Shown here: one piece after another, positions 3,303 to 19,598 of the stretch | Numbering within the stretch: the first letter of the stretch is position 1 | Layout: the number at the start of each line of letters is the position of its first letter | Notes under the pieces: generated by a model | The model's input: only the letters and a program-made list of their open reading frames with translations | Databases searched by the model: none | What the model was told of the DNA's origin: nothing | Program-made: the position numbers and the translations under genes | Source of the DNA: Chitinophagaceae bacterium T5-Br10_B2g13 | GTDB lineage: Bacteria; Bacteroidota; Rhodothermia; Balneolales; Balneolaceae | Length of the DNA stretch: 64,000 bases | Reading direction: 5' to 3' | NCBI GenBank assembly: GCA_001564065.1 | Contig: LKNA01000001.1 | Coordinates: forward strand, 1 to 64,000

Positions 3303-6300
3303 TTAAACCTTTTCTTTCTCCCCGACCATTATCAATTCCACTCGGTGAGTTTTACCGTCATTCAAAATTTTAATCTTCGCCATAATCTTATCCTGAGAGA
3401 ATTCTTCTCCATCCACTTGACCTGCCAGTTTACCGGACTCTAAACCATCCCGGTTTTCAATTTTAATAATGTACTCCGTTCCAATGTCATCAGGTTTGTA
3501 ACGTATTGTGTACGATTTCCAGGATTTCGAAATAGCCGGTTTCAGTATAATCTGTTTTCCCTCTATTCTGAACCCTAATACAGATTCCAGCATCACCCTG
3601 TACATCCATCCGCCTGATCCGGTGTACCAGGTCCAACCGCCCATACCGGTCAGGGGTGGTTCGCCATATACATCAGCTGCAACCACATAAGGTTCCACTT
3701 TGTACTGAAGGCATTTGTCAAATGTGGAAGCATGATTAATCGGGTTCACCATGTTAAGGTAGTTTACCGCCTTTTCACCTCTGCCGAGCTCTGCCATGGC
3801 TTTGATCAGCCAAAGTGCTGCGTGAGTATATTGACCGCCATTTTCCCGTACCCCGGGAATGTAACCTTTGATGTAGCCCGGATTTTTCTCGGTTTTGTCA
3901 AAAGGCGGGGTCAACAGTCGAATAATTCCTTCCGGCTCCGATACCAGGTGATTTTCGGCTGACTGCAGTGCCTTTTGAGCGCGCTCATCCGTTGCAACGC
4001 CAGAAATAACCGCCCACGCCTGCGAAATAGCATCAATCTTACACTCCTCATTCTGCACTGATCCAAGCGGAGTACCGTCATCATAATACGCCCTCAGGTA
4101 CCACTCACCATCCCAGCCTGCATCATTCAACCTTTTTTTAAGTTCAGAGGCTGTTTTCTTATACCTCTCAGCACGGTTTGTATCATCCATTTTTTTACAG
4201 ATTGGAATAAAACGATCCAGCGTGATATAGATGAAGAATCCCAGCCAAACGCTTTCACCTCTGCCCTCTTCACCCACGCGATTCATCCCGTCATTCCAGT
4301 CTCCGGCACCTATTAAAGGAAGTCCGTGTTGCCCAAACTGCAGTGAAATATCGATCGCTTTACAGCAGTGCTCATAAAGAGATCCGGTTTTTTCTGTTAC
4401 CTGTGGTGTGAGATACACTTCATGTTCATCATCCTCCAGGGAACGGGCAGTTATGTAAGAAATCTCTTCATTCAGAATATCACGGTCGCCCGTAACACGT
4501 ATGTAGTGATCTGTTACGTATGGCAGCCAGAGACGGTCATCTGTAATTTTAGACCGGATCCCTCTGCCCGTTGGCGGATGCCACCAGTGTAGCACATCAC
4601 CCTCTTCAAACTGTTTGGATGCATGTAGTAAAATCTGCGTTCTGGTTAGAGCAGGATCCACATAAAGCAGTGCCATGGAGTCCTGGAGCTGATCCCGAAA
4701 TCCAAATGCACCTCCGGCCTGGTAGTATGCCGTTCGTCCCCACATTCTGCTGGACAAATTTTGATAGGTCAGCCAGCCATTCACCATCAAATCTATCGAC
4801 TTATCCGGAGTTTCAACCTGTACTCTTCCGATCTTGTCTGACCAGAAATCTATCACAGAACTTAGTGCCGACTCCGCCTTTTCAACATCCCTGTATTCAG
4901 AAAGAACTTTTTTCGCCTCCACTTCACTTTTTGCTTCTCCGTCGAAAAAGTAGATGACTCTTTTTTCTCCCTTTTCCAGATTTAAGTCAAACTGAAGTGC
5001 CGCGCAGGGATCTGAACCTACATCGATCCGGTTATCGAGGTTCTTATTTTTGCCAACTGCTATCGGATTATTCAGAGATCGATTCCGGCCAATAAAATTC
5101 TCTCTTTCAGTGGTGTAGAAAACTTCATCTTCATAATCAGGCATATAAACTCCTGAGTATGCCACCCTTCCGGCAAACTCGTTGTTATAGAAATTTCTCG
5201 AAAACAGGGATTGCATTTCATTCATAAAATGGGAGGTGACATATCTCGATGAGCTCTTTCGGCTCACTCCCAAAACCGTATCCAGATACCTGAAAAGTGA
5301 AAGTGAGCACGACTTCCTGTCAACATTCTCAATCGTCAAACGGCTGATTTTTACTGAGTCGCTTAAGGGCACAAAATGTGTAAGCTCTTGCTTCAGGCCT
5401 GCGCTTTTGTGATGAAATGTGGTATGTCCGAACCCGTGAACTGCTTCATAGTTGCCATTTCCGGGAACGGGGCCGGGTGCCGGAGACCAGAAAATTTTAC
5501 GTTCATTATCCCGTATAAAGAATGCTTCAGAATGCGTATCTAAAACCGGATCATTCGACCAGGTCGTGATTTTATTCTCCCGGCTGTTTTCACTCCAGGT
5601 ATATCCTGCCCCGCGCTCGGAAACGAGTGTACCGAAATCCGGGTTCGAAAGTATGTTTACCCAGGGTGCCGGTGGAAAACTGTGCCGGTTGGTTTCCGGG
5701 TCAATGTTTATCTGAATCCGGTACTCTTTTCCATCTTCACTGAATCCTCCAAAGCCGTTGAAAAAACGCAAATTCTCTTCAGGTTTCCGTTCATCAATCT
5801 CATCGTTGAACTCCACGGGTACCGGTTTATAATCATTTTCTACTCCCTCATTCATCCACGATTGCGTATCCACTCCCTGAAGAATCAGATCTTCTCTGGC
5901 CGGAAGTTTATGCCTGAACTGTGCATGCGCTACTGTTTGAACCAACATTAAATCCTCAGGCGGTATTTTATCGGTTCGATGGACGAATATTCCACCGTAC
6001 TTGTTAATCAACCCTCTTTCGGATGATGATTCAATGAGCTGATAAATTGCTTCCTGAACTTCATCAGCGTAACTCGGAGCATGATCGTTTAGAATAAGAA
6101 GTTCACTTTGCAACCCCCGCTGTCTCCAGAAAGCGTGAGCCTTCAGCATCTTTTTGAGGTGTTTAATCTGATCTGTCTGATCTATTTTGAAGACCACCAA
6201 AGGTAAATCCCCCGAGATTCCATAAGCCCAGAGGTCCTGCTGCTTCTTGCGATTTTGCATCAAAATCGAAGAGTCAGCTCTGAATTTTGAATTTGAGTAG

Positions 6301-9300
6301 ATGAGATGAGAAGCTAATTTTTGGAAATAATGAGCCTCCCTTGAATTAATTCCAATATGATTCAGCTCCACAGAACTGTAAACATCAGCCAGGTCAAAAG
6401 CTCTGAAAACAGATAGAGAATTATCATACATATCGGCCATATGAATAGCCTCCTGTTCGGATTTGGCATATCCCAACCCAAATGCGAAAATAACTTTTTC
6501 ACCCGGACCCAGTTTAATTTTCTTTCGAAGGCTCATGATCGGATCGGATACATTTCCCAGCGAGCAATCCAGTCTTGAATCTGAATCCATTGCCTTCGGA
6601 TGGCTTAGTGTCCTGCCTCTCCCGATAAACTTTGATCGCTCCGTTTCATATTGAAGCGGATCCGTTAAATTATCCGAATCATCCCCTGCAAAGGTATGAA
6701 CCATCCACATTGGAGATTCTTTATCACTTCGGGGTCTGCGTTTGGCAAGCAGAGCATGATGTTCAGCCAGGTATTCTGTTTGAATAAACAGCTTGGAAAA
6801 TGCAGGATGTGCATTGTGATCCTTACTCTGATTCAATACAACTTCTGCATAGCTGGTTACCTCAAGTTCCCTCTCTTTTTCTGAGTAGTTGGTCAATGTA
6901 ATTTTTCGAAGCTCGATTGGGTAGTCCGGCGATACACAAACTTCCGTTGTTGTCTCAATCCACTCATCCACTCTTGAGGTCACCATTTTACCGTTGTGGA
7001 ACCAGCTGTCGTATCGATCAGGCTTCCGCTTTACGGGCTGATGACCGGCCGACCAGAATTTACCGCTCTTCAAATCTTTGATATAGACAAATACCCCCAG
7101 TGGGTCAACGGTTGGATCAGGTTCCCACCCGTTTAGAGTTACCCCATTACACTGAGAGCTGCCCGTACCGGTGTGGGTCAGAAGAGTCGAGAAATTACCG
7201 TTTGAGAGGATATGAAGTCGAGGCGGGCTCGTATCCAACTCGCCCATTCCGGCATGCTCCACAATTTTCTGGACTGCTTCCTGTTCGCCCGGCTCCAGCT
7301 CCACTTCAATTGGATGAGGCTCTTTAATGGGCACTCCCCTTGGAACCCGCTCTTGCAAAATTAACTCACAGCCCTGGATTCTCGGATCTGCATGAAAGTA
7401 TTCCTGAATCAGGTTGTCGTTCATAAAGTTTTCCAGGGCAATCAATCCCATCCCATGATGGTGTACCATATACGACTTAACCACTTTGTGAGATTCCCCA
7501 CTGTTCAGCCGGGACGGTGTAAAGTCAAGCGCATCATAAAAACCGTGCAGCCCAAACCCACCCTTTCTCTCAATTCTCTTAAGGTTTTCTATGGATGAAA
7601 ACGGATCAACGGACAGCGACAACAGCGAGGCATACGGAGCCACTACATACTCCTCCGCAAGGCCACGCTTCAGACCCAGCCCTGGAGCTCCAAACGCCCG
7701 ATACTGATAGTGCATATCGATATTTAAATTGTAGTAGGCGCTTTCAGAAAACCCCCAGGGTTTCTTATTCTTTTTGCCATATTCCTGCTGCCATTTCACA
7801 ACATTCTCATAGGTGTGATCCATCAGCGTTTCGGGTACGCTTTTCATGAATAAAAGCGGCATCAGATATTCAAACATGGTACCTCCCCAGGAGAGCAAAA
7901 TCTCATTACGGCTCAAACTTGTCAGTCGTCTGCTCAATCTGAACCAGTGCTCTACCGGGATGTCGCCTTTGGCAATCGCTATGTAGGATGCGATCCTGGC
8001 TTCACTGGCAAGCAGGTCGTACGTACTCTTATCGAGTTGTGCACGATCAACATTGTACCCGATAGTGAACAGCCCTCTTTTCTTCAAATAGAGAAACGTA
8101 AAATCCATCTCTTCGATCAGCTTTTCACAAATCGATATAATATTATCTGTTTGTTTCTTCCACCGATTCAGGAGGAGGATACATTGAGATTTGTTCTCCC
8201 GATTCTGGGCATACTCATCCAGCATCTTAGGCGAATAGTCTGACAGGTCCCGGTCCGAATCCATACTCAAACATTTCCATTCAGCAATTGATTTTTCCAA
8301 CTGATGGAGCGGACTCTCAACCCAGTAGCGTAAATCCTGCATGTATTGATCATCGTAATGACTTCCCAATGGCAGCAAGTCGACAGCACTTAAGCGAGCG
8401 GCATCCTCTTTAATTTCACGAAGCAGATCGAGTCCGGACTTTTCACTCTGTTTAATTTTATCGAGCATAATCTTTGTGACCAATTGTATTTCCCTAAAGC
8501 AAGGATTAGCCTGTGGACAATCATTCTCAAGCTCATCAAAAATATTCTTGACGGTACGAACCGTGTCTTTTAAGCCCTGCCAGAATTTTGAGTTTAAAGC
8601 CTGTTCTTCCGAAGCTGCTCTGATACCCTCTTTTGCCACAATCAATCCTGCTGCTAAATTTCCGGAATCAACCGTAGATACATACCTCGGGTTTAATACA
8701 TCCCCCATTGTTGTTTGATACCAATTGAAAAAATGCCCCTTATAGCGCTCCAGTTTGTTTATAGAGAGCAGGGTATTCTCCATTCTATCTAACAGCTCAC
8801 TGTAAGTAATGTATCCACGGTTATATGCAACCAGGTTTGCAGTCAAGGCCAGACCAATATTCGTGGGAGACGTTCTGTCTACCGGAGATAGTGGTGGATC
8901 TACCTGGAAATTATCCGGCGGGAGCCAGGAGTTTTTGTCTGTAACCATTCGTTCAAAAAAGAACCAGGTTCGCCTGCTATACTCTCTGAGTAGTAAATAA
9001 TCTGACTTATCGACTTTGGCTTGGGTAGATTTAGTCGGTTGACTTATATACCAAACGTAAAACGGAGCACCGGACCAAAGCACAAAAAATGGAGCCAGTG
9101 TCCACAAGTAACCGGGATTCGTGTTGAGTGCACCCACAAGTATCCACACACCCAAAATGACAGGAAGCAGCATCATTCTAACATAAGCAGAGAGTGAGTT
9201 CGGGCTATTGGACTCTGTTTGAGATGCCGTTGTCCACTCCAGTAAATTTCTCTTCGAAATACTGAGGCGGTAAAGTGTTCTGAAAACCGCATCCAGTTGC

Positions 9301-12005
9301 ACCAAAGCCTGGTGCGGTAAAACAATAACAGTCGATAAAGCCTGAACCGTATTAATTTTAAGATTGTCTTGAACTTTTTCCCAATAAAGCTTCCAGCGAA
9401 CTCTTGCCGGCCGATTAACAATATCAGTTGAGAGACTCACATAAATCGGGAATGCAAGTATTCCGAATGCAAAGAGCGTCCAAAGCCAGGCAGGCCCCGG
9501 CAGAAAAAACCAACCGGACACAAAAAAGAGTGTCAGAAAAAATGGATTTAGTGATCTTCGTAAATTGTCAAAAATCTTCCACCTTGAAAGGATATTGATT
9601 CGGTTTCTCTCTTTCCCGTTTTGGGTGGGTACTCTTTTCAAAAGCCAGGCGGCAATTTGCCAGTCGCCGCGCGTCCAGCGATGACTTCTTTTGCTATAGC
9701 TTGCATATGTAAGCGGATAGTCGTCATACAATTCAATATCTGAAGCAAGCCCGGTTCTCAAATATGTACTTTCAATTAAATCGTGGGAAAGAATGCGGTT
9801 TTCCGGAAATCGATCATTTAAGACTTCATGGAAAGCTCTCACGTCATAAATACCCTTTCCTGTAAAAACGGCTTCTCCGGCCAGATCCTGGTAAATATCA
9901 GATACAGCCGTTGAATAGGGATCCAAACCTACGTTTCCTGAAAATATTCTGGAAAACCATGTTTTCCGGGCCGAAGACGGAGGAATGGAAATTCTGGGTT
10001 GAATAATGGCATATCCCGACGTGATTCTCTTTTTCTCCCGGTTCAAAAATGCGCGGTTCAGCGGATGAGATATGGTACTGACTAACTTGATGGCACTATC
10101 GGGCGGTAACTTTGTATCCGAATCTAATGTTATGACATAGTTTACATTTTCCCGCTGAATCGATTCAGTGAAATCACCTGCCATAAACGAGTACGTTGTA
10201 TCTGTATCCGGATCACAAAGAAGCTGGTTAAACTCTTCCAGTTTGCCCCTTTTTCGCTCCCAACCCATCCATACTCCTTCTGCTTCGTTCCAGAGGCGAT
10301 CTCTGTGCAGTACAAAAAATTTATCCCCATAAGCTGAAGAGTACTTCTCATTCAACTCCAAAATAGCTTTTTTGGCTTCATCCAGAATCTCCTGGTCTTT
10401 CGGTTCTGTTTTATTAACCGAATCTTTAAAATCTGAAAGCAGAGCAAACTGCAGTCCCGGGTGCGGGTTTGCCAAAGATCTTATTTCAAGCCGATTTATT
10501 TGATCTCTCACATCTTCGGCTGAAGAAAACATTGTAGGTACCACAACCATTGTTCTGGATGAATCGGGAATAGTGTCCCTAAAATCCATTTTATTCAACT
10601 TTCGGGGCGGAAGCAGAAATACAAAAAATCGATTAACGGCCGAAACGGACAGATCAAGCGCCGGGAAAAATGAAACCAATACTACCGAAGTAGCAATGAA
10701 CAGAGATTCACTAATAGCGTCCGTTACAAACCATAAAATCACCATCAGTACTATAGTATGCAGGATAATGGTGGCTATATACCAAAAAGGCCGGTTTTCG
10801 AGTCCTTTCTGCAATCTTTCGCGATATGGCATGCGATACCCCAGAATGGAAGCAAACTTTTTGTATCCCTCGCCTACCAGATAGTACCCGATATGTTCTT
10901 TTGTTGCAGACCGATTATAAAGTGAGTCCGAACCTTCATCACTCTCCTCATTCAAACGGCTTTGATCTTCTGCCAAGATCAATACCTGTTCTGCAACATT
11001 CGTTTCAGACTTTTCTGAGTATCGGCTTAAACGCTCAACAACACGGCGATAACGATCCCGTGTTTCAAAATCCATTTTGGAATAGGCCCCATAGGGATCA
11101 AGTCGAAGGATCTGATCTACAATAGAACACTCTTCAACAAAATCAGACCAATCTGTTTCCGAAGATTCACGAAGTGTAATAACAGCATTTTGGATACTGA
11201 CCTGGAGACGGGACTGCCGCTGTGCATCAGTGCGCTTGGCTTCATCAGCCGTAACATCCAGCTGTTTAAATCTGTAATTGAACCATCTCTTCTGTTCTTC
11301 CTGCAGAAGGCCGCTCTGCTGCAACTGGTTATAAAGTTCAATCAGTACGGGAACAATATCATCCGTATTCCTATACTTTTCTATCCAATCAGACATGGAG
11401 TTAATCAGCTTTCCGGGTTCGTGAATATCACTTTCACTCTTTTTACTGATCAGATCATTGACTTCTCTCCAAATCTTTTTCCTGTCTAAAATTCGGGAAG
11501 CTTTTTCTGAAAGGTTCTGAACCAGAATTAACCGGATCATAATAGGTATAGCCCATATCTCCCCCAACTTCAGAGTTTCATGCTGCTGATACTGCTGCAC
11601 ATAATGAATTAATACCCCCTCATCCACAAGGTTGTCGGTATGTAAGAGGTAGTTTAGTATCAGCTCATAAACTCTGGGCAAACCCTCATGTTCGCCGGTG
11701 GAAAGTGCGGGAAGTCGTTTTTGAAATTCTCGTGGAAAATCCTCTTCAACCTGAACAATCTGCTCCTGAATGATGTAAAAATTGTCGATTAACCACTCTG
11801 CAGCTGTCGAAAGGTCCCGGTTCTGTTTGGCCAGACCGGACAACACCCGATAGGCATCTACCAATACCTTTTTGGAGTCTTCAATAATGGGTTTAACCGG
11901 ACGCATTCTTTTCGAGGAGTCTGATACGGAATGTATCTCTGCCAGATTTGCTGCACTCTCTTTTAAATAGCTAATATTATAGGATATCTTGGATTCCTGA
12001 TCCAT
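3303..12005 (-). CDS. Cyclic beta-1,2-glucan synthase family (NdvB/ChvB-like; GT plus glycoamylase-like plus GH94 modules)
   Basis: ORF 2900 aa; GT motifs (NYVITLDSDTKLP, RSHRWTRGDWQ), multiple TM segments, glycoamylase-like (GGTMFEYLMPLLF), GH94 signature GAGDWNDGMNRVG. Confidence 0.93.
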   Translation of the reverse strand: MDQESKISYNISYLKESAANLAEIHSVSDSSKRMRPVKPIIEDSKKVLVDAYRVLSGLAKQNRDLSTAAEWLIDNFYIIQEQIVQVEEDFPREFQKRLPALSTGEHEGLPRVYELILNYLLHTDNLVDEGVLIHYVQQYQQHETLKLGEIWAIPIMIRLILVQNLSEKASRILDRKKIWREVNDLISKKSESDIHEPGKLINSMSDWIEKYRNTDDIVPVLIELYNQLQQSGLLQEEQKRWFNYRFKQLDVTADEAKRTDAQRQSRLQVSIQNAVITLRESSETDWSDFVEECSIVDQILRLDPYGAYSKMDFETRDRYRRVVERLSRYSEKSETNVAEQVLILAEDQSRLNEESDEGSDSLYNRSATKEHIGYYLVGEGYKKFASILGYRMPYRERLQKGLENRPFWYIATIILHTIVLMVILWFVTDAISESLFIATSVVLVSFFPALDLSVSAVNRFFVFLLPPRKLNKMDFRDTIPDSSRTMVVVPTMFSSAEDVRDQINRLEIRSLANPHPGLQFALLSDFKDSVNKTEPKDQEILDEAKKAILELNEKYSSAYGDKFFVLHRDRLWNEAEGVWMGWERKRGKLEEFNQLLCDPDTDTTYSFMAGDFTESIQRENVNYVITLDSDTKLPPDSAIKLVSTISHPLNRAFLNREKKRITSGYAIIQPRISIPPSSARKTWFSRIFSGNVGLDPYSTAVSDIYQDLAGEAVFTGKGIYDVRAFHEVLNDRFPENRILSHDLIESTYLRTGLASDIELYDDYPLTYASYSKRSHRWTRGDWQIAAWLLKRVPTQNGKERNRINILSRWKIFDNLRRSLNPFFLTLFFVSGWFFLPGPAWLWTLFAFGILAFPIYVSLSTDIVNRPARVRWKLYWEKVQDNLKINTVQALSTVIVLPHQALVQLDAVFRTLYRLSISKRNLLEWTTASQTESNSPNSLSAYVRMMLLPVILGVWILVGALNTNPGYLWTLAPFFVLWSGAPFYVWYISQPTKSTQAKVDKSDYLLLREYSRRTWFFFERMVTDKNSWLPPDNFQVDPPLSPVDRTSPTNIGLALTANLVAYNRGYITYSELLDRMENTLLSINKLERYKGHFFNWYQTTMGDVLNPRYVSTVDSGNLAAGLIVAKEGIRAASEEQALNSKFWQGLKDTVRTVKNIFDELENDCPQANPCFREIQLVTKIMLDKIKQSEKSGLDLLREIKEDAARLSAVDLLPLGSHYDDQYMQDLRYWVESPLHQLEKSIAEWKCLSMDSDRDLSDYSPKMLDEYAQNRENKSQCILLLNRWKKQTDNIISICEKLIEEMDFTFLYLKKRGLFTIGYNVDRAQLDKSTYDLLASEARIASYIAIAKGDIPVEHWFRLSRRLTSLSRNEILLSWGGTMFEYLMPLLFMKSVPETLMDHTYENVVKWQQEYGKKNKKPWGFSESAYYNLNIDMHYQYRAFGAPGLGLKRGLAEEYVVAPYASLLSLSVDPFSSIENLKRIERKGGFGLHGFYDALDFTPSRLNSGESHKVVKSYMVHHHGMGLIALENFMNDNLIQEYFHADPRIQGCELILQERVPRGVPIKEPHPIEVELEPGEQEAVQKIVEHAGMGELDTSPPRLHILSNGNFSTLLTHTGTGSSQCNGVTLNGWEPDPTVDPLGVFVYIKDLKSGKFWSAGHQPVKRKPDRYDSWFHNGKMVTSRVDEWIETTTEVCVSPDYPIELRKITLTNYSEKERELEVTSYAEVVLNQSKDHNAHPAFSKLFIQTEYLAEHHALLAKRRPRSDKESPMWMVHTFAGDDSDNLTDPLQYETERSKFIGRGRTLSHPKAMDSDSRLDCSLGNVSDPIMSLRKKIKLGPGEKVIFAFGLGYAKSEQEAIHMADMYDNSLSVFRAFDLADVYSSVELNHIGINSREAHYFQKLASHLIYSNSKFRADSSILMQNRKKQQDLWAYGISGDLPLVVFKIDQTDQIKHLKKMLKAHAFWRQRGLQSELLILNDHAPSYADEVQEAIYQLIESSSERGLINKYGGIFVHRTDKIPPEDLMLVQTVAHAQFRHKLPAREDLILQGVDTQSWMNEGVENDYKPVPVEFNDEIDERKPEENLRFFNGFGGFSEDGKEYRIQINIDPETNRHSFPPAPWVNILSNPDFGTLVSERGAGYTWSENSRENKITTWSNDPVLDTHSEAFFIRDNERKIFWSPAPGPVPGNGNYEAVHGFGHTTFHHKSAGLKQELTHFVPLSDSVKISRLTIENVDRKSCSLSLFRYLDTVLGVSRKSSSRYVTSHFMNEMQSLFSRNFYNNEFAGRVAYSGVYMPDYEDEVFYTTERENFIGRNRSLNNPIAVGKNKNLDNRIDVGSDPCAALQFDLNLEKGEKRVIYFFDGEAKSEVEAKKVLSEYRDVEKAESALSSVIDFWSDKIGRVQVETPDKSIDLMVNGWLTYQNLSSRMWGRTAYYQAGGAFGFRDQLQDSMALLYVDPALTRTQILLHASKQFEEGDVLHWWHPPTGRGIRSKITDDRLWLPYVTDHYIRVTGDRDILNEEISYITARSLEDDEHEVYLTPQVTEKTGSLYEHCCKAIDISLQFGQHGLPLIGAGDWNDGMNRVGEEGRGESVWLGFFIYITLDRFIPICKKMDDTNRAERYKKTASELKKRLNDAGWDGEWYLRAYYDDGTPLGSVQNEECKIDAISQAWAVISGVATDERAQKALQSAENHLVSEPEGIIRLLTPPFDKTEKNPGYIKGYIPGVRENGGQYTHAALWLIKAMAELGRGEKAVNYLNMVNPINHASTFDKCLQYKVEPYVVAADVYGEPPLTGMGGWTWYTGSGGWMYRVMLESVLGFRIEGKQIILKPAISKSWKSYTIRYKPDDIGTEYIIKIENRDGLESGKLAGQVDGEEFSQDKIMAKIKILNDGKTHRVELIMVGEKEKV

Positions 12006-14039: not shown

Positions 14040-14461
14040 GATTTATTATCACAAATGGAAGTTCATCACATTTTCAGCCGATCCATACAGCAGATAACCC
14101 TCTCTTTTGTAGTATAAGTTTATACTCTTTTGTACTGTTTTTCCTTGGTGGTAGTCCGGCGGGTACCTATTCCAACTACAATACTTCGTTAAACCTAATC
14201 AGGCATGGTATAACCGGTTTTACAGATAGGCATTCGTTTTTTCTCCTGTTAGTTCAAAGGGAAAATCATACATAATAAGACGTCTAAATCAGGTTTTGGG
14301 AAACCATTATTTGATAGTCTGTTTATCAACCTCCAAATAAGGTGACTGTACCCTGTGGTGATAATACTACAAGCAATTAACAGCAAATCTTACACGGCGT
14401 TATCACCTAAGTGTTTATACTACTATTGAGTTCTTTGAGCAAATGAGAGTGACTAGATTTA

Positions 14462-14650
14462 GGGCACAGTTTAATTCGTTACTACGGTAACAAGTTGAAC
14501 ATATCAGGAAATAGTCCGCTGATAAATCAATGTATCTTCAACAAAAGGAGTGCATGATTGTGCCCCGGTCTGAATTTGTGGTTAATGTTGAGCAAGCAAG
14601 TGACCCGAAAACAGCCAGAGAGAAAACAAGAGAGGTTCGGTAAAGAAACT
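14462..14650 (+). ncRNA. RNA element A, 5' structured module (unidentified class)
   Basis: Closing helix GGGCACA(14462-14468)/TGTGCCC(14559-14565); hairpin GTTAC-TACG-GTAAC (14478-14491); hairpin ATCAG-GAAATAGTCCG-CTGAT (14503-14523); CGGTC/GACCCG helix downstream. Homologous to 16294-16469. Confidence 0.65.
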
Positions 14651-14751
14651 CGAAGCCAGCAGTTAGGGGTGCCCTGGATCCAACAGGACTGAGAAAAACC
14701 CTCTGAACTTGAATCCCGATCATACGGGGCGTAAGGAAATTGTTGGCTTCG
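14651..14751 (+). ncRNA. TPP (Thi-box) riboswitch-like aptamer, element A
   Basis: P1 CGAAGCCAGCA/TGTTGGCTTCG; AGGGGTG...AACCCT (P2); CCTG/CAGG (P3); ACTGAGA junction; AACTTGAA...CCCG-ATCATA-CGGG...GCGTAAGGAAA (P4/P5). Same topology as the TPP aptamer. Confidence 0.8.
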
Positions 14752-14772
14752 ATATCTAATTAAGAGAGAGTA

Positions 14773-14809
14773 GCCCGGCAATCAATAGTCCTGATTGCCG
14801 GGCTTTTTT
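14773..14809 (+). terminator. Rho-independent terminator 21 nt after TPP-like aptamer A
   Basis: GCCCGGCAATCA-atagtcc-TGATTGCCGGGC followed by TTTTTT. Confidence 0.88.
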
Positions 14810-14906
14810 GTTCCAGGGTAGAACTTTATGAATGGAATAGTACGATACTCATGACTTAAAGTTCATCCCATATGCTGGAATAAATCGTATCAATTCAGTA
14901 TGCGAA

Positions 14907-15278
14907 TCATTTCCGAATCGGGGAACTCCTCTTTAGAACAGGTTTTGCTTCACGCAAATCATCAGTCAGATCCTCTTTGTGATGTTGGTGAAAGACGTTA
15001 ATCAAAAATAGAAATAACCATGTTCCAATAAATGAAAAGAATACTCCATCACCTATTCCTGTAGCTATGCCTATTATTCCGATACCCACACTTCCAATCA
15101 CCCCAAAAATGATGTTAGCATAAAACGAAACCCCCTCTTTTCGAATAATTAATGCCATAGAGAGCCCTACGATTAAACCGACAGAGATGTACCAATAAAT
15201 AAGTGTACCTGTTATTACATCCATGGTCTTTCTCCTAATAATTAAATGATGTGGATGATCCGGCCGGCTTTGTGCCAT
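14907..15278 (-). CDS. Small membrane protein, GlsB/YeaQ/YmgE (transglycosylase-associated)-like
   Basis: ORF 123 aa; three TM segments, IIRKEGVSFYANIIFGVIGSVGIGIIG; probable start at internal Met (MDVITG). Confidence 0.55.
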   Translation of the reverse strand: MAQSRPDHPHHLIIRRKTMDVITGTLIYWYISVGLIVGLSMALIIRKEGVSFYANIIFGVIGSVGIGIIGIATGIGDGVFFSFIGTWLFLFLINVFHQHHKEDLTDDLREAKPVLKRSSPIRK

Positions 15279-15339
15279 CTTTTCGCTTTCGCGTTAACCG
15301 GGTCTGCACCCTAAACCGACCGGTCATCCAGATATTAGC

Positions 15340-15549
15340 TCACGCTTTCTGATCTTCCAGTACAAAAGTAATCTTGGCATTCACTCTGAATTTGACCACT
15401 TTATTATTTTCCACTATCCCCTGCATGTTTTCGCAATAAACACTTCGGATATTGTGAACTGTTTTCGATGCTTCTTTCACCGCATTTTTAACAGCATCTT
15501 CCATTGTGCTTCCTTCCGCTATAACTTCAATAACTTTTGCTAAAGACAT
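15340..15549 (-). CDS. Dodecin family flavin-binding protein
   Basis: ORF 69 aa; KVIEVIAEGSTMEDAVKNAVKEASKTVHNIRSVYCENMQGIVENNKVVKFRVNAKITFVLE matches dodecin pattern. Confidence 0.92.
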   Translation of the reverse strand: MSLAKVIEVIAEGSTMEDAVKNAVKEASKTVHNIRSVYCENMQGIVENNKVVKFRVNAKITFVLEDQKA

Positions 15550-15844
15550 AATCTCTCCTATTTAAGCTTTATTTAGTGCGTTCACTTAAAGGTTATAAAT
15601 CTATTCATTCTTCAGCGTGCTTGATCTGTAAGGTCGCTGTAAAACTTTCACTGTTCGATCTGTAAGTAATCCATAACCTCAAATCGGACGGAGAATCGTA
15701 ACAATTATGTCAGGTTTTCCTTACATCAATCTCGGTGATTCCATGAGCCCAACTCCATCATTAAACTGATAACAGTTCTGTCGGCATTAGTTAATTTACA
15801 CTAAACTGAAGCTGATATATTGAATCATAAAATCCGGAGAGTTT

Positions 15845-16096
15845 ATGAGACCGTACGAAAGAAGAATAAAATTAGTCCTGGACGTACCGAAGAAAACGGG
15901 CGCTTATCATAAGTTAATGGAGCAATGGGAGAATGAAGGTGGAGCAATTAAAGTCAATCAAAGCAGTGAAATAATCCCGGAAGCAAATATACCATTTCGA
16001 GAAGGCGAAGCATTCCAGGTTGTGAGGGGATCCATCGATTTCGAGGAAGAAGGAGTCTACTACATTGTTGATATCATGAAAGTAGATATCGAGTAA
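15845..16096 (+). CDS. Small protein of unknown function (83 aa)
   Basis: ATG preceded by GGAGAG-type purine-rich sequence; compact acidic ORF. Confidence 0.6.
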   Translation: MRPYERRIKLVLDVPKKTGAYHKLMEQWENEGGAIKVNQSSEIIPEANIPFREGEAFQVVRGSIDFEEEGVYYIVDIMKVDIE

Positions 16097-16293
16097 TAGC
16101 CACCATTCAATAATCCATTAAAAGAGTAATTAACCGAACTCGGGCTGGAAATAAAACAGAAAGTCTTATTCTTCGGGTGGCTTTCACTGTGATTCAAGAA
16201 AATACTACAACTTGATTTTCTAAAGAACTACAAGGTTTTTAATAACTGTTTTTATACTGCAGTAGAAGTTATTGACATACTGTAAAAAATTAA

Positions 16294-16469
16294 GAGCACA
16301 GAGTCATTCTTATGCTACGGCTGAGAGTTATTCAGACCAGAAAAATTATCCGCTGGCTCTTTTTAAATCCTTCAAACGATTCGAAAAGTGTGCTCCGGTT
16401 AACCATTTTCCAATTCCTGAAAATTGGTTGTAAACGGTGATTTATTAAGCCGATTACAAAAAATATTGT
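16294..16469 (+). ncRNA. RNA element B, 5' structured module (homolog of element A)
   Basis: Closing helix GAGCACA(16294-16300)/TGTGCTC(16389-16395); CTACGG at 16315-16320; hairpin CCAG-AAAAATTATCCG-CTGG (16337-16356); CCGG helix start at 16395. Aligns to 14462-14650. Confidence 0.65.
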
Positions 16470-16565
16470 CGGAGTCTTGGCGGGAGTGTCTTGATTCGTT
16501 CAAGTCTGAGATACATTCTTATAACTTGAAGCAGTTAATACTGACGAAAGGAGACTGAGACTCCG
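16470..16565 (+). ncRNA. TPP (Thi-box) riboswitch-like aptamer, element B
   Basis: P1 CGGAGTCT/AGACTCCG; GAGTGT...ACATTC (P2); CTTGA-TTCGT-TCAAG (P3); TCTGAGAT junction; AACTTGAA-GCAGT-TAAT-ACTGACGAAAGG (P4/P5). Confidence 0.82.
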
Positions 16566-16584
16566 ATCAATTTCAATCAAAAAG

Positions 16585-16628
16585 AATAACCCCGTTGTGA
16601 TTCAATTCGCAACGGGGTTATTTATTAT
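16585..16628 (+). terminator. Terminator 19 nt after TPP-like aptamer B (may be bidirectional with hsp20)
   Basis: AATAACCCCGTTG...CAACGGGGTTATT stem followed by TATTATTA. Confidence 0.8.
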
Positions 16629-17382: not shown

Positions 17383-18048
17383 TTATAGCTTATGCTCGCT
17401 TTCTACCCATTTTACCGCATGGAATATCATTTCTGTAGAGTTTTTAAAATCCATCTTCTCCTTGATGCGAGACCGGTATGTTTCCACAGTTTTAGATGCA
17501 AGATGAAGCTGCTCGGCAATTTCACCGCTGCTCTTGCCACGACCAATTAATTCAAACACTTCAAGTTCCCGATCACTTAAAATATCAATCGATGAAACTG
17601 ATCCTTCTTTTTTCCCATGCATGGCATTCATCAGCAGTTTCTCGTTCAACGAGTCACTCACATAGATTCCGCCATTTAGAATTTTCCGTACAGCTTTCAC
17701 CAGCTTTTCACTCGGCTCAAACTTCATAATGTACCCCTTTGCCCCGGCTCTAAGCGCTCTCTCCCCATAAAGAGACTCTTCGTGGCGGGAAACAACCAGG
17801 ATCTTCATGTCGGGATCCTGAAAAATAATATTCTTAACCAGCTCTATCCCATTCATTCCGGGAAGTGACACATCCACCAGCAGCAGATCCAGTTTATCTT
17901 TATCCAAAATTTCCAGTACATCCTCAGCCTTTTCACACTGATAAGCCACTTCCAGATCCGGTTCCATTTCCAGCGTACTGGCAAGTCCTTTTCTCATCAT
18001 AGGATGATCGTCAACAATTAAAACTCTCTTCTTGAATGGATTATTCAT
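17383..18048 (-). CDS. NarL/LuxR-family response regulator
   Basis: ORF 221 aa; VLIVDDHPMMRKGL, LLLVDVSLPGMNGIEL, LSDRELEVFELIGRGKSSGEIAEQLHLASKTVETYRSRIKEKM. Confidence 0.95.
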   Translation of the reverse strand: MNNPFKKRVLIVDDHPMMRKGLASTLEMEPDLEVAYQCEKAEDVLEILDKDKLDLLLVDVSLPGMNGIELVKNIIFQDPDMKILVVSRHEESLYGERALRAGAKGYIMKFEPSEKLVKAVRKILNGGIYVSDSLNEKLLMNAMHGKKEGSVSSIDILSDRELEVFELIGRGKSSGEIAEQLHLASKTVETYRSRIKEKMDFKNSTEMIFHAVKWVESEHKL

Positions 18049-19459: not shown

Positions 19460-19598
19460 CCCTCAATCTAATCTTTGAACCAAGTTACTTCATTTATCTC
19501 TCACTTTATTATCCCTTCTCCTTAAAAAACAGACCACTTTACTATACCAGCATACTCAAAAATTTTACAAAATGAATCATAAAAAACCCTTCATTGGA

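What the first reader, a model, noticed from the sequence alone, without database searches (positions are those of the whole stretch)
14462..16628. Two homologous composite structured RNAs (A 14462-14809, B 16294-16628), each a novel-looking 5' module plus TPP-like aptamer plus terminator, with no gene behind them
Seen directly: two same-strand elements 1.8 kb apart share the same architecture: closing helix, C(UACG)G, hairpin with a conserved loop, second helix starting CCGG, TPP-like aptamer, terminator. Enclosed lengths are nearly equal (90 nt vs 88 nt inside the closing helix). Primary sequence between them is mostly diverged while paired positions are kept, as expected for a functional RNA. 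Both are followed by convergent minus-strand genes rather than a same-strand target. Inference: either a stand-alone thiamine-responsive ncRNA, a tandem/composite riboswitch with an unidentified upstream sensor, or riboswitches that lost their genes. Two copies with preserved structure argue against simple decay.
Basis: partly seen in the sequence, partly recalled or inferred. Interest (0 to 1): 0.9.

Follow-up and report, generated by a model that had tools for sequence, protein, structure and literature searches.

The report
Vitamin-sensing small RNAs without genes
The two elements belong to an undescribed family of small structured RNAs, found only in the salt-loving bacterial family Balneolaceae, that control no adjacent gene: one branch carries a vitamin-B1 (TPP) sensor at its tail, as here, and the other sits behind binding sites for the replication initiator DnaA, which suggests one effector RNA wired to two different cellular signals.

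Summary
Both elements are real and belong to an uncatalogued RNA family. I found 82 copies in 50 of 98 Balneolaceae genomes, and none elsewhere among the class (252) and phylum (399) genomes searched. 33 of 37 pairs show compensatory change. Rfam has no match; the downstream domain is a variant TPP aptamer scoring just below threshold here (53.4 and 47.3 vs 54.3 bits).

The module exists in two lineages, separated by one change on its tree. Lineage I (41 copies) is a stand-alone ~115-nt RNA with a poly-U end. Its promoter sits behind a phased DnaA-box array that, in the 28 genomes of the window's genus, occurs nowhere else. Lineage II (the window) lies in stress-gene islands behind a tandem CTACA repeat spaced 23 bp; 32 of 41 copies carry the TPP aptamer before the terminator. 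Downstream genes are mostly convergent (50:28).

Best reading: independently transcribed, probably trans-acting sRNAs with a shared effector module; in lineage II a TPP-family aptamer adds a metabolite input. Hfq and CsrA are absent from the family (0/98). Transcription, ligand binding and target are untested.

The parts
14367..14394 (+). Element A promoter: tandem direct repeat CTACA (14367-14371) / TTACA (14390-14394), 23 bp apart; putative activator site
   Evidence: 23-bp-spaced repeats: 24 of 42 lineage-II-type promoters (20-24 bp spacing), 0 of 40 lineage I, 1% of random windows
14416..14421 (+). Element A -10 like TATACT
   Evidence: read from sequence; TATACT/TATAAT recurs at a similar place in other lineage II copies
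14461..14571 (+). Element A 5' module (CM R2 match, 84.1 bits)
14462..14468 (+). A, P1 closing helix 5' strand, pairs with 14559-14565
   Evidence: 5 of 7 P1 pairs with two-sided changes, 97% of cells paired
14502..14524 (+). A, second hairpin (UAUCAG/CUGAUA) with A-rich loop; loop CCG 14516-14518 is the pseudoknot 5' strand
   Evidence: 6 of 6 stem pairs with two-sided changes, 95% of cells paired
14566..14568 (+). A, pseudoknot 3' strand CGG directly after P1
   Evidence: core paired in 81 of 82 copies; six copies with a changed core (CCU/AGG x3, CCU/GGG, CUG/CAG, CCA/UGG) still pair
14655..14754 (+). A, variant TPP aptamer (RF00059, 53.4 bits)
14772..14809 (+). A, intrinsic terminator AGCCCGGCAAUCA...UGAUUGCCGGGCUUUUUU
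   Evidence: stem in the fold
16205..16232 (+). Element B promoter: CTACA (16205-16209) / CTACA (16228-16232), 23 bp apart
16253..16258 (+). Element B -10 like TATACT
   Evidence: read from sequence
16293..16401 (+). Element B 5' module (CM R2 match, 78.5 bits); P1 3' strand 16389-16395, pseudoknot 16350-16352 with 16396-16398
16472..16569 (+). B, variant TPP aptamer (RF00059, 47.3 bits)
16585..16624 (+). B, intrinsic terminator AAUAACCCCGUUG...CAACGGGGUUAUU
   Evidence: stem in the fold

Best explanation
Elements A and B are two genes for members of an uncatalogued small-RNA family of the Balneolaceae. SHOWN: the ~112-nt 5' module (7-bp closing helix P1, three hairpins, and a pseudoknot from the second hairpin's loop to the CGG just 3' of P1) is a conserved RNA present in 50 of 98 genomes. 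It occurs as two paralogous lineages. Lineage I ends in a U-tract directly after the module and is preceded, at fixed distance, by a phased array of DnaA boxes. Lineage II, to which A and B belong, has a different promoter with a 23-bp direct repeat, lies in stress-gene islands, and mostly carries a TPP aptamer between module and terminator. INFERRED: both are transcribed as free RNAs that act in trans; the module is the effector, and promoter and aptamer are interchangeable inputs. In lineage II a two-component stress regulator probably switches transcription on, and TPP binding to the 3' aptamer tunes completion, 3'-end formation or stability of the RNA. In about nine copies the aptamer's closing stem runs straight into the U-run, so ligand-stabilised termination is the simplest coupling there. 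In the window the aptamer and terminator are separate, so coupling through stability or folding is likelier. The effector's partner is unknown. With no Hfq or CsrA in the family and such a constrained fold, I favour a specific protein partner over Hfq-type base pairing.
For: Homologs: 82 modules, 50 of 98 family genomes, 13 of 23 genera. Covariation: 33 of 37 pairs with two-sided change, 755 such cells vs 242 in shuffles and 60-158 in slid controls; already 18 of 29 pairs on a sequence-only MAFFT alignment. Pseudoknot: core paired in 81 of 82, mean length 3.71 vs 3.13 permuted, 0 of 2000 as high. Not cis-regulatory: downstream gene convergent 50, co-directional 28. Free-standing form: lineage I RNAs start ~35 nt after TTGACA and end CGGUAC-UUUUUUU. 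DnaA boxes: at least one perfect box in 39 of 42 copies whose RNA starts like lineage I, vs 1 of 40 others, background 0.03 per 130 nt; the array occurs 27 times in 28 genus genomes, always before a module; the same 9-mers lie upstream of dnaA in 12 of 12 genomes. One change separates the lineages on the module tree, 94/93 support. Aptamer: ten or more lineage II domains reach Rfam's cut-off in their loci, up to 70.9 bits; CUGAGA in all 32 (required by the search pattern) and the CG of the pyrophosphate site in 26. Stress island: Hsp20, dodecin, DUF2267, PAS-histidine kinase and LuxR-type regulator, flavodoxin; P-type ATPase, MMPL, phosphoribosyltransferase elsewhere. No Hfq, no CsrA in 98 genomes.
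Against: No expression data of any kind. A target or partner was not found. The TPP domain of A and B scores below Rfam's cut-off, and in three relatives (L156, L159, L161) the pyrophosphate-contact residues are lost, so ligand binding is not assured in all. In A and B the aptamer's closing stem and the terminator are separate helices, so ligand-controlled termination is not obvious there. About a third of copies have a co-directional downstream gene. Lineages were assigned by string matches, and the alignment used for most counts was fitted to the model structure.
Confidence: 0.65

Rival explanations
1. Tandem or composite riboswitch: the 5' module is itself an aptamer for an unknown ligand and works with the TPP aptamer as a two-input switch.
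For: Compact multi-helix junction with pseudoknot and an A-rich loop, the look of a metabolite aptamer; tandem riboswitches with TPP are known (PMC9481103).
Against: There is no common downstream gene to control; the module occurs 41 times alone as a complete unit directly followed by a U-tract; downstream genes are mostly convergent.
Confidence: 0.15
2. The TPP domain no longer senses anything: it is a domesticated structural 3' end protecting the RNA.
For: Below-cut-off scores in A and B; loss of pyrophosphate contacts in L156, L159, L161; likely decayed aptamer in L096.
Against: Ligand-contact residues are kept in most copies (CUGAGA in all 32 found, CG 26 of 32), several domains score 60-71 bits, and sibling copies lack the domain altogether.
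Confidence: 0.15
3. Relic riboswitches that lost their thiamine genes.
For: No same-strand gene follows A or B; TPP scores are lowish.
Against: 32 TPP-bearing copies in many genera share one composite design (module, variant aptamer, mostly a terminator) and covary; a canonical TPP riboswitch of this genome lies elsewhere on the contig (G000:C98:105417-105523, 68.5 bits).
Confidence: 0.03
4. Local control by read-through or antisense: TPP-dependent termination decides whether the transcript invades the convergent gene.
For: Convergent gene in 21 of 31 TPP-bearing copies with a called downstream gene; terminator-embedded aptamers in about nine copies.
Against: The convergent gene differs between loci; A and B have a strong separate terminator; ten TPP copies have a co-directional neighbour.
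Confidence: 0.08
5. The lineage I locus is mainly a DNA element (DnaA titration or reactivation site such as datA/DARS, or origin-like) and its RNA is incidental.
For: Phased DnaA boxes at fixed distance, up to five copies per genome, not at dnaA.
Against: RNA helices covary strongly, a conserved -35/-10 and U-tract flank the RNA, and the homologous lineage II RNA lacks DnaA boxes.
Confidence: 0.06

Closest known systems
EutX (Enterococcus faecalis) and Rli55 (Listeria monocytogenes)
   Same: A riboswitch aptamer belongs to an independently transcribed trans-acting sRNA rather than an mRNA leader (PMC7602753); trans-acting riboswitches are described as rare (PMC7266159).
   Different: There a B12 riboswitch controls synthesis of the sRNA by premature termination; here a TPP-family aptamer follows the effector module, the module is a different fold, and half of the family has no aptamer but a DnaA-box promoter. 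No ANTAR protein link was tested.
TPP riboswitch (Rfam RF00059)
   Same: Same aptamer fold; CUGAGA J3-2 and usually the CG of J5-4 are kept.
   Different: No thiamine gene in cis; consistent P4 variant CUUGA/AAGGA in 27 of 32 instead of CCUGA/AGGGA; fused behind a novel module.
HMP-PP (thiS) riboswitch with terminator-embedded aptamer (PMC6478431)
   Same: In about nine copies the aptamer's closing stem is followed at once by a U-run.
   Different: Different aptamer and no downstream thiamine gene; not the arrangement in the window.
CcnA ncRNA of Caulobacter crescentus (PMC8959179)
   Same: A free ncRNA gene associated with DnaA boxes and the cell cycle.
   Different: CcnA lies at the origin, its DnaA boxes are weak and inside the gene, and it is under CtrA. 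Structures were not compared. Lineage I copies are dispersed, with strong phased upstream boxes.

Membership tests
TPP riboswitch RF00059 | Covariance model match at gathering score | tested here: inconclusive
   A 53.4 and B 47.3 bits vs 54.3; relatives up to 70.9 bits
TPP riboswitch RF00059 | Ligand-contact residues (J3-2 UGAGA; C77, G78; G60) | tested here: met
   CUGAGA, CUUGA and CG present in A and B; 26 of 32 copies keep CG; contacts from PMC7824784 and PMC3764141
TPP riboswitch RF00059 | Cis control of a thiamine gene | tested here: not met
   Convergent non-thiamine genes follow A and B; no common downstream gene in relatives
TPP riboswitch RF00059 | Binds TPP | not testable with these tools
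   Needs in-line probing; some RNAs classed as TPP riboswitches prefer thiamin or TMP (PMC9481103)
Riboswitch-controlled trans-acting sRNA (EutX/Rli55 type) | Own promoter and terminator, no gene in cis | tested here: met
   (sequence evidence only)
Riboswitch-controlled trans-acting sRNA (EutX/Rli55 type) | Ligand controls sRNA synthesis; trans target | not testable with these tools
   no expression data or target
Any Rfam 15 family for the 5' module | Match at gathering score or a credible E-value | tested here: not met
   none at gathering, none credible in permissive mode for the window or stand-alone copies
CsrA-sponge or Hfq-dependent sRNA | Host encodes CsrA or Hfq | tested here: not met
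   0 of 98 family genomes have either; controls ring
DnaA-regulated promoter (lineage I) | DnaA boxes at fixed distance, same 9-mers as at dnaA | tested here: met
   binding itself not testable here

The most novel reading that the evidence does not exclude
One effector RNA module has been duplicated and wired to two unrelated core signals: replication initiation (DnaA boxes, lineage I) and thiamine-cofactor status plus a stress regulator (3' TPP aptamer, lineage II). It is a new sRNA class in which a vitamin aptamer is a 3' input module of a trans-acting RNA, perhaps with altered ligand specificity (thiamine, TMP or another thiamine phosphate).
Probability: 0.4. Interest if true: 0.92.

Novelty: new variant of a known kind. 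Interest (0 to 1): 0.85.

Why it matters
Metabolite-sensing RNAs that act without a gene in cis are described as rare exceptions. This would add a TPP-family example whose effector domain is an uncatalogued RNA fold shared with a sister lineage under apparent DnaA control. It gives a directly testable link between a vitamin cofactor, a stress regulon and the replication initiator in a group of bacteria that lacks Hfq and CsrA and whose RNA biology is unstudied as far as my literature searches reach. It also shows that low-scoring 'orphan' TPP hits can be real and not decay.

Tried and rejected
Chance or decay: rejected by 80 further homologs and covariation. A known Rfam class for the module: permissive cmscan of the window and of stand-alone copies gave nothing credible (the RybB hit at 14738-14811 is mainly the terminator hairpin). 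More copies in the own genome by plain BLAST: only self and terminator noise; the CM was needed. Wider distribution: order (135 genomes), class (252) and a phylum sample (399) gave only one family. A pattern scan of named genomes gave Balneolaceae plus a handful of hits in unrelated taxa (about 5 expected by my own estimate), which I took as chance and did not examine. CsrA sponge or Hfq sRNA: neither protein is in the family. Lineage I at the replication origin: no, dnaA lies elsewhere in the genomes tested. A hairpin terminator GUAC-UCCG-GUAC for lineage I fits only part of the copies; the pseudoknot adjacent to the U-tract fits better. A conserved alternative pairing between P1 and the aptamer (seen in A by eye) is not conserved in others.

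Full report
What was checked. Both are in the sequence where stated. Each folds much better than shuffled sequence (z -6.0 and -7.6). Rfam release 15 gives no match at gathering score in the whole window. In permissive mode it gives TPP at 14655-14754 (53.4 bits, cut-off 54.3) and 16472-16569 (47.3 bits), and nothing credible over the 5' modules. The next genes downstream are on the other strand.

Homologs. A TPP search of 61 relatives showed, besides the strong hits in each genome, a second set of mostly weaker hits, some in tandem. The weakest of these carried the same 5' module upstream. A covariance model of the module from 11 copies (R1), then from 52 (R2), found it in 50 of 98 genomes of the window's family, 13 of 23 genera, up to five copies per genome. 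It was found nowhere else in the order, class or a phylum sample. Named records that carry it are Balneolaceae, among them Fodinibius salsisoli and Rhodohalobacter sulfatireducens; scattered hits in unrelated taxa were taken as chance and not followed up.

Structure. On a sequence-only alignment 18 of 29 predicted pairs already had compensatory change. On 82 copies, 33 of 37 pairs do; 755 cells changed on both sides against 242 in shuffles and at most 158 when partners are slid (this alignment was fitted to the model). The fold is P1 (7 bp), hairpin 1 usually with a C(UACG)G-type tip, hairpin 2 with an A-rich loop ending in CCG, hairpin 3, and a pseudoknot of that CCG with the CGG directly after P1. 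The pseudoknot core pairs in 81 of 82 copies. Six copies have changed it and still pair: CCU/AGG (three), CCU/GGG, CUG/CAG and CCA/UGG. Length beyond the core also exceeds permuted loop-tail combinations (3.71 vs 3.13, none of 2000 as high).

Two lineages. In 40-41 copies the module is the whole transcript: a TTGACA...TAATTA promoter ends just before it and a U-run follows it directly. In front of these promoters, at a fixed 82-84 or 93-94 nt from the RNA start, lies an array TGTGGATAA-cT-nTGTGGAAAA-gT-TGTGGAAAA with 11-bp phasing. At least one perfect DnaA box is present upstream of 39 of 42 copies whose RNA starts like lineage I, and of 1 of 40 others. In the 28 genomes of the genus the array occurs 27 times, always before a module (one of them cut by a contig end), and never in the reversed control. 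The same 9-mers lie upstream of dnaA in 12 of 12 genomes tested, at other loci, which is why I call them DnaA boxes. The other lineage, to which A and B belong, has no such boxes. Instead 24 of 42 non-lineage-I promoters have two direct [C/T]TACA or CTAC[A/G] elements 20-24 bp apart, mostly 23 (0 of 40 in lineage I, 1% background). A weight matrix from these also scores before the window's flavodoxin gene and its 2900-aa minus-strand gene, above shuffled counts but weakly. 32 of these copies carry the TPP domain; the rest of the group has lost or never had it, and three G036 copies are odd tandem cases. On a tree of the module alone the two lineages are separated by a single change (94/93). 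With few columns the tree is only coarsely resolved.

TPP domain. CUGAGA is intact in all 32 (the search pattern required it). The P4 helix is CUUGA/AAGGA in 27 of 32, where the canonical thiamine-type riboswitches seen here read CCUGA/AGGGA. The CG that contacts the pyrophosphate is kept in 26 (contacts from PMC7824784 and PMC3764141). Ten or more of these domains reach Rfam's cut-off in their loci, up to 70.9 bits. In L156, L159 and L161 the pyrophosphate site is lost, so specificity may vary; variant TPP-class RNAs preferring thiamin or TMP are known (PMC9481103). In about nine copies the aptamer's closing stem runs straight into a U-run, a terminator-embedded aptamer as described for HMP-PP (PMC6478431). 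In A and B aptamer and terminator are separate.

Setting. Around A and B lie DUF2267, dodecin, Hsp20, a PAS-histidine kinase with a LuxR-type response regulator, and a flavodoxin. Lineage II elsewhere sits near P-type ATPases, MMPL exporters, phosphoribosyltransferases and DksA-type zinc fingers. By general knowledge this looks like a stress or survival island. The downstream neighbour is convergent in 50 and co-directional in 28 of 78 copies, against a cis-regulatory role. Hfq and CsrA are absent from all 98 family genomes, so the usual helpers of sRNAs do not apply.

Interpretation. The same structured module appears under two unrelated promoters and with or without an aptamer, and it has no common gene in cis. 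The economical reading is a trans-acting effector RNA with exchangeable inputs. That the RNAs are made, that the aptamers bind a thiamine compound, that DnaA and a stress regulator act on the promoters, and what the module binds are inferences. The nearest known design is EutX/Rli55, sRNAs controlled by a B12 riboswitch (PMC7602753), but here the aptamer lies at the 3' end behind the effector and the fold is different. I file the downstream part as TPP-type by sequence and fold, not as a TPP riboswitch in the cis-regulatory sense, since that feature was tested and not met. I file the module under no known family.

Noticed in passing
L113, L138, L145 and other lineage I loci, about 60-94 nt upstream of the RNA start: Phased array of DnaA boxes (11-bp spacing) before stand-alone sRNA genes dispersed in the genome, not at dnaA; same 9-mers upstream of dnaA.
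   Followed up: yes
window 14367-14394, 16205-16232; weaker at 19579 (+) and 12091 (-): Tandem CTACA/CTTACA direct repeat with 23-bp spacing, possibly the operator of the stress-island response regulator (17383-18048); also before the flavodoxin gene 19885 and the 2900-aa minus-strand gene 3303-12005.
   Followed up: partly
lineage II copies, about 10-30 nt upstream of the module (window 16273-16283): Conserved UUGACAUACUGA-like leader lying inside the presumed transcript, at a position that does not fit a -35 box; unexplained.
   Followed up: no
window 14761-14771 and several lineage IIa relatives: Conserved purine run UUAAGAGAGAG between aptamer and terminator; role unknown.
   Followed up: no
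G000:C98:105417-105523 (L062), outside the window: A canonical, high-scoring TPP riboswitch (68.5 bits) on the same contig.
   Followed up: partly
L046 3981-4079 (-) and 4204-4296 (+): Two TPP riboswitches back to back on opposite strands about 125 bp apart, divergent.
   Followed up: no
L156, L159, L161 (aptamer downstream of the module): TPP-like aptamers that lost the pyrophosphate-contact CG and P4 G60 while keeping CUGAGA; candidates for changed ligand specificity.
   Followed up: no
L121 (G036) 3875-4922: Three clear and two weak module copies in tandem within 1.1 kb, one with a CTATGGTA repeat expansion in hairpin 1.
   Followed up: no
L124 848-1177 (-): Sub-threshold cspA thermoregulator-like RNA (39.6 bits vs 78, E 8e-7) in a Balneolaceae genome.
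   Followed up: no
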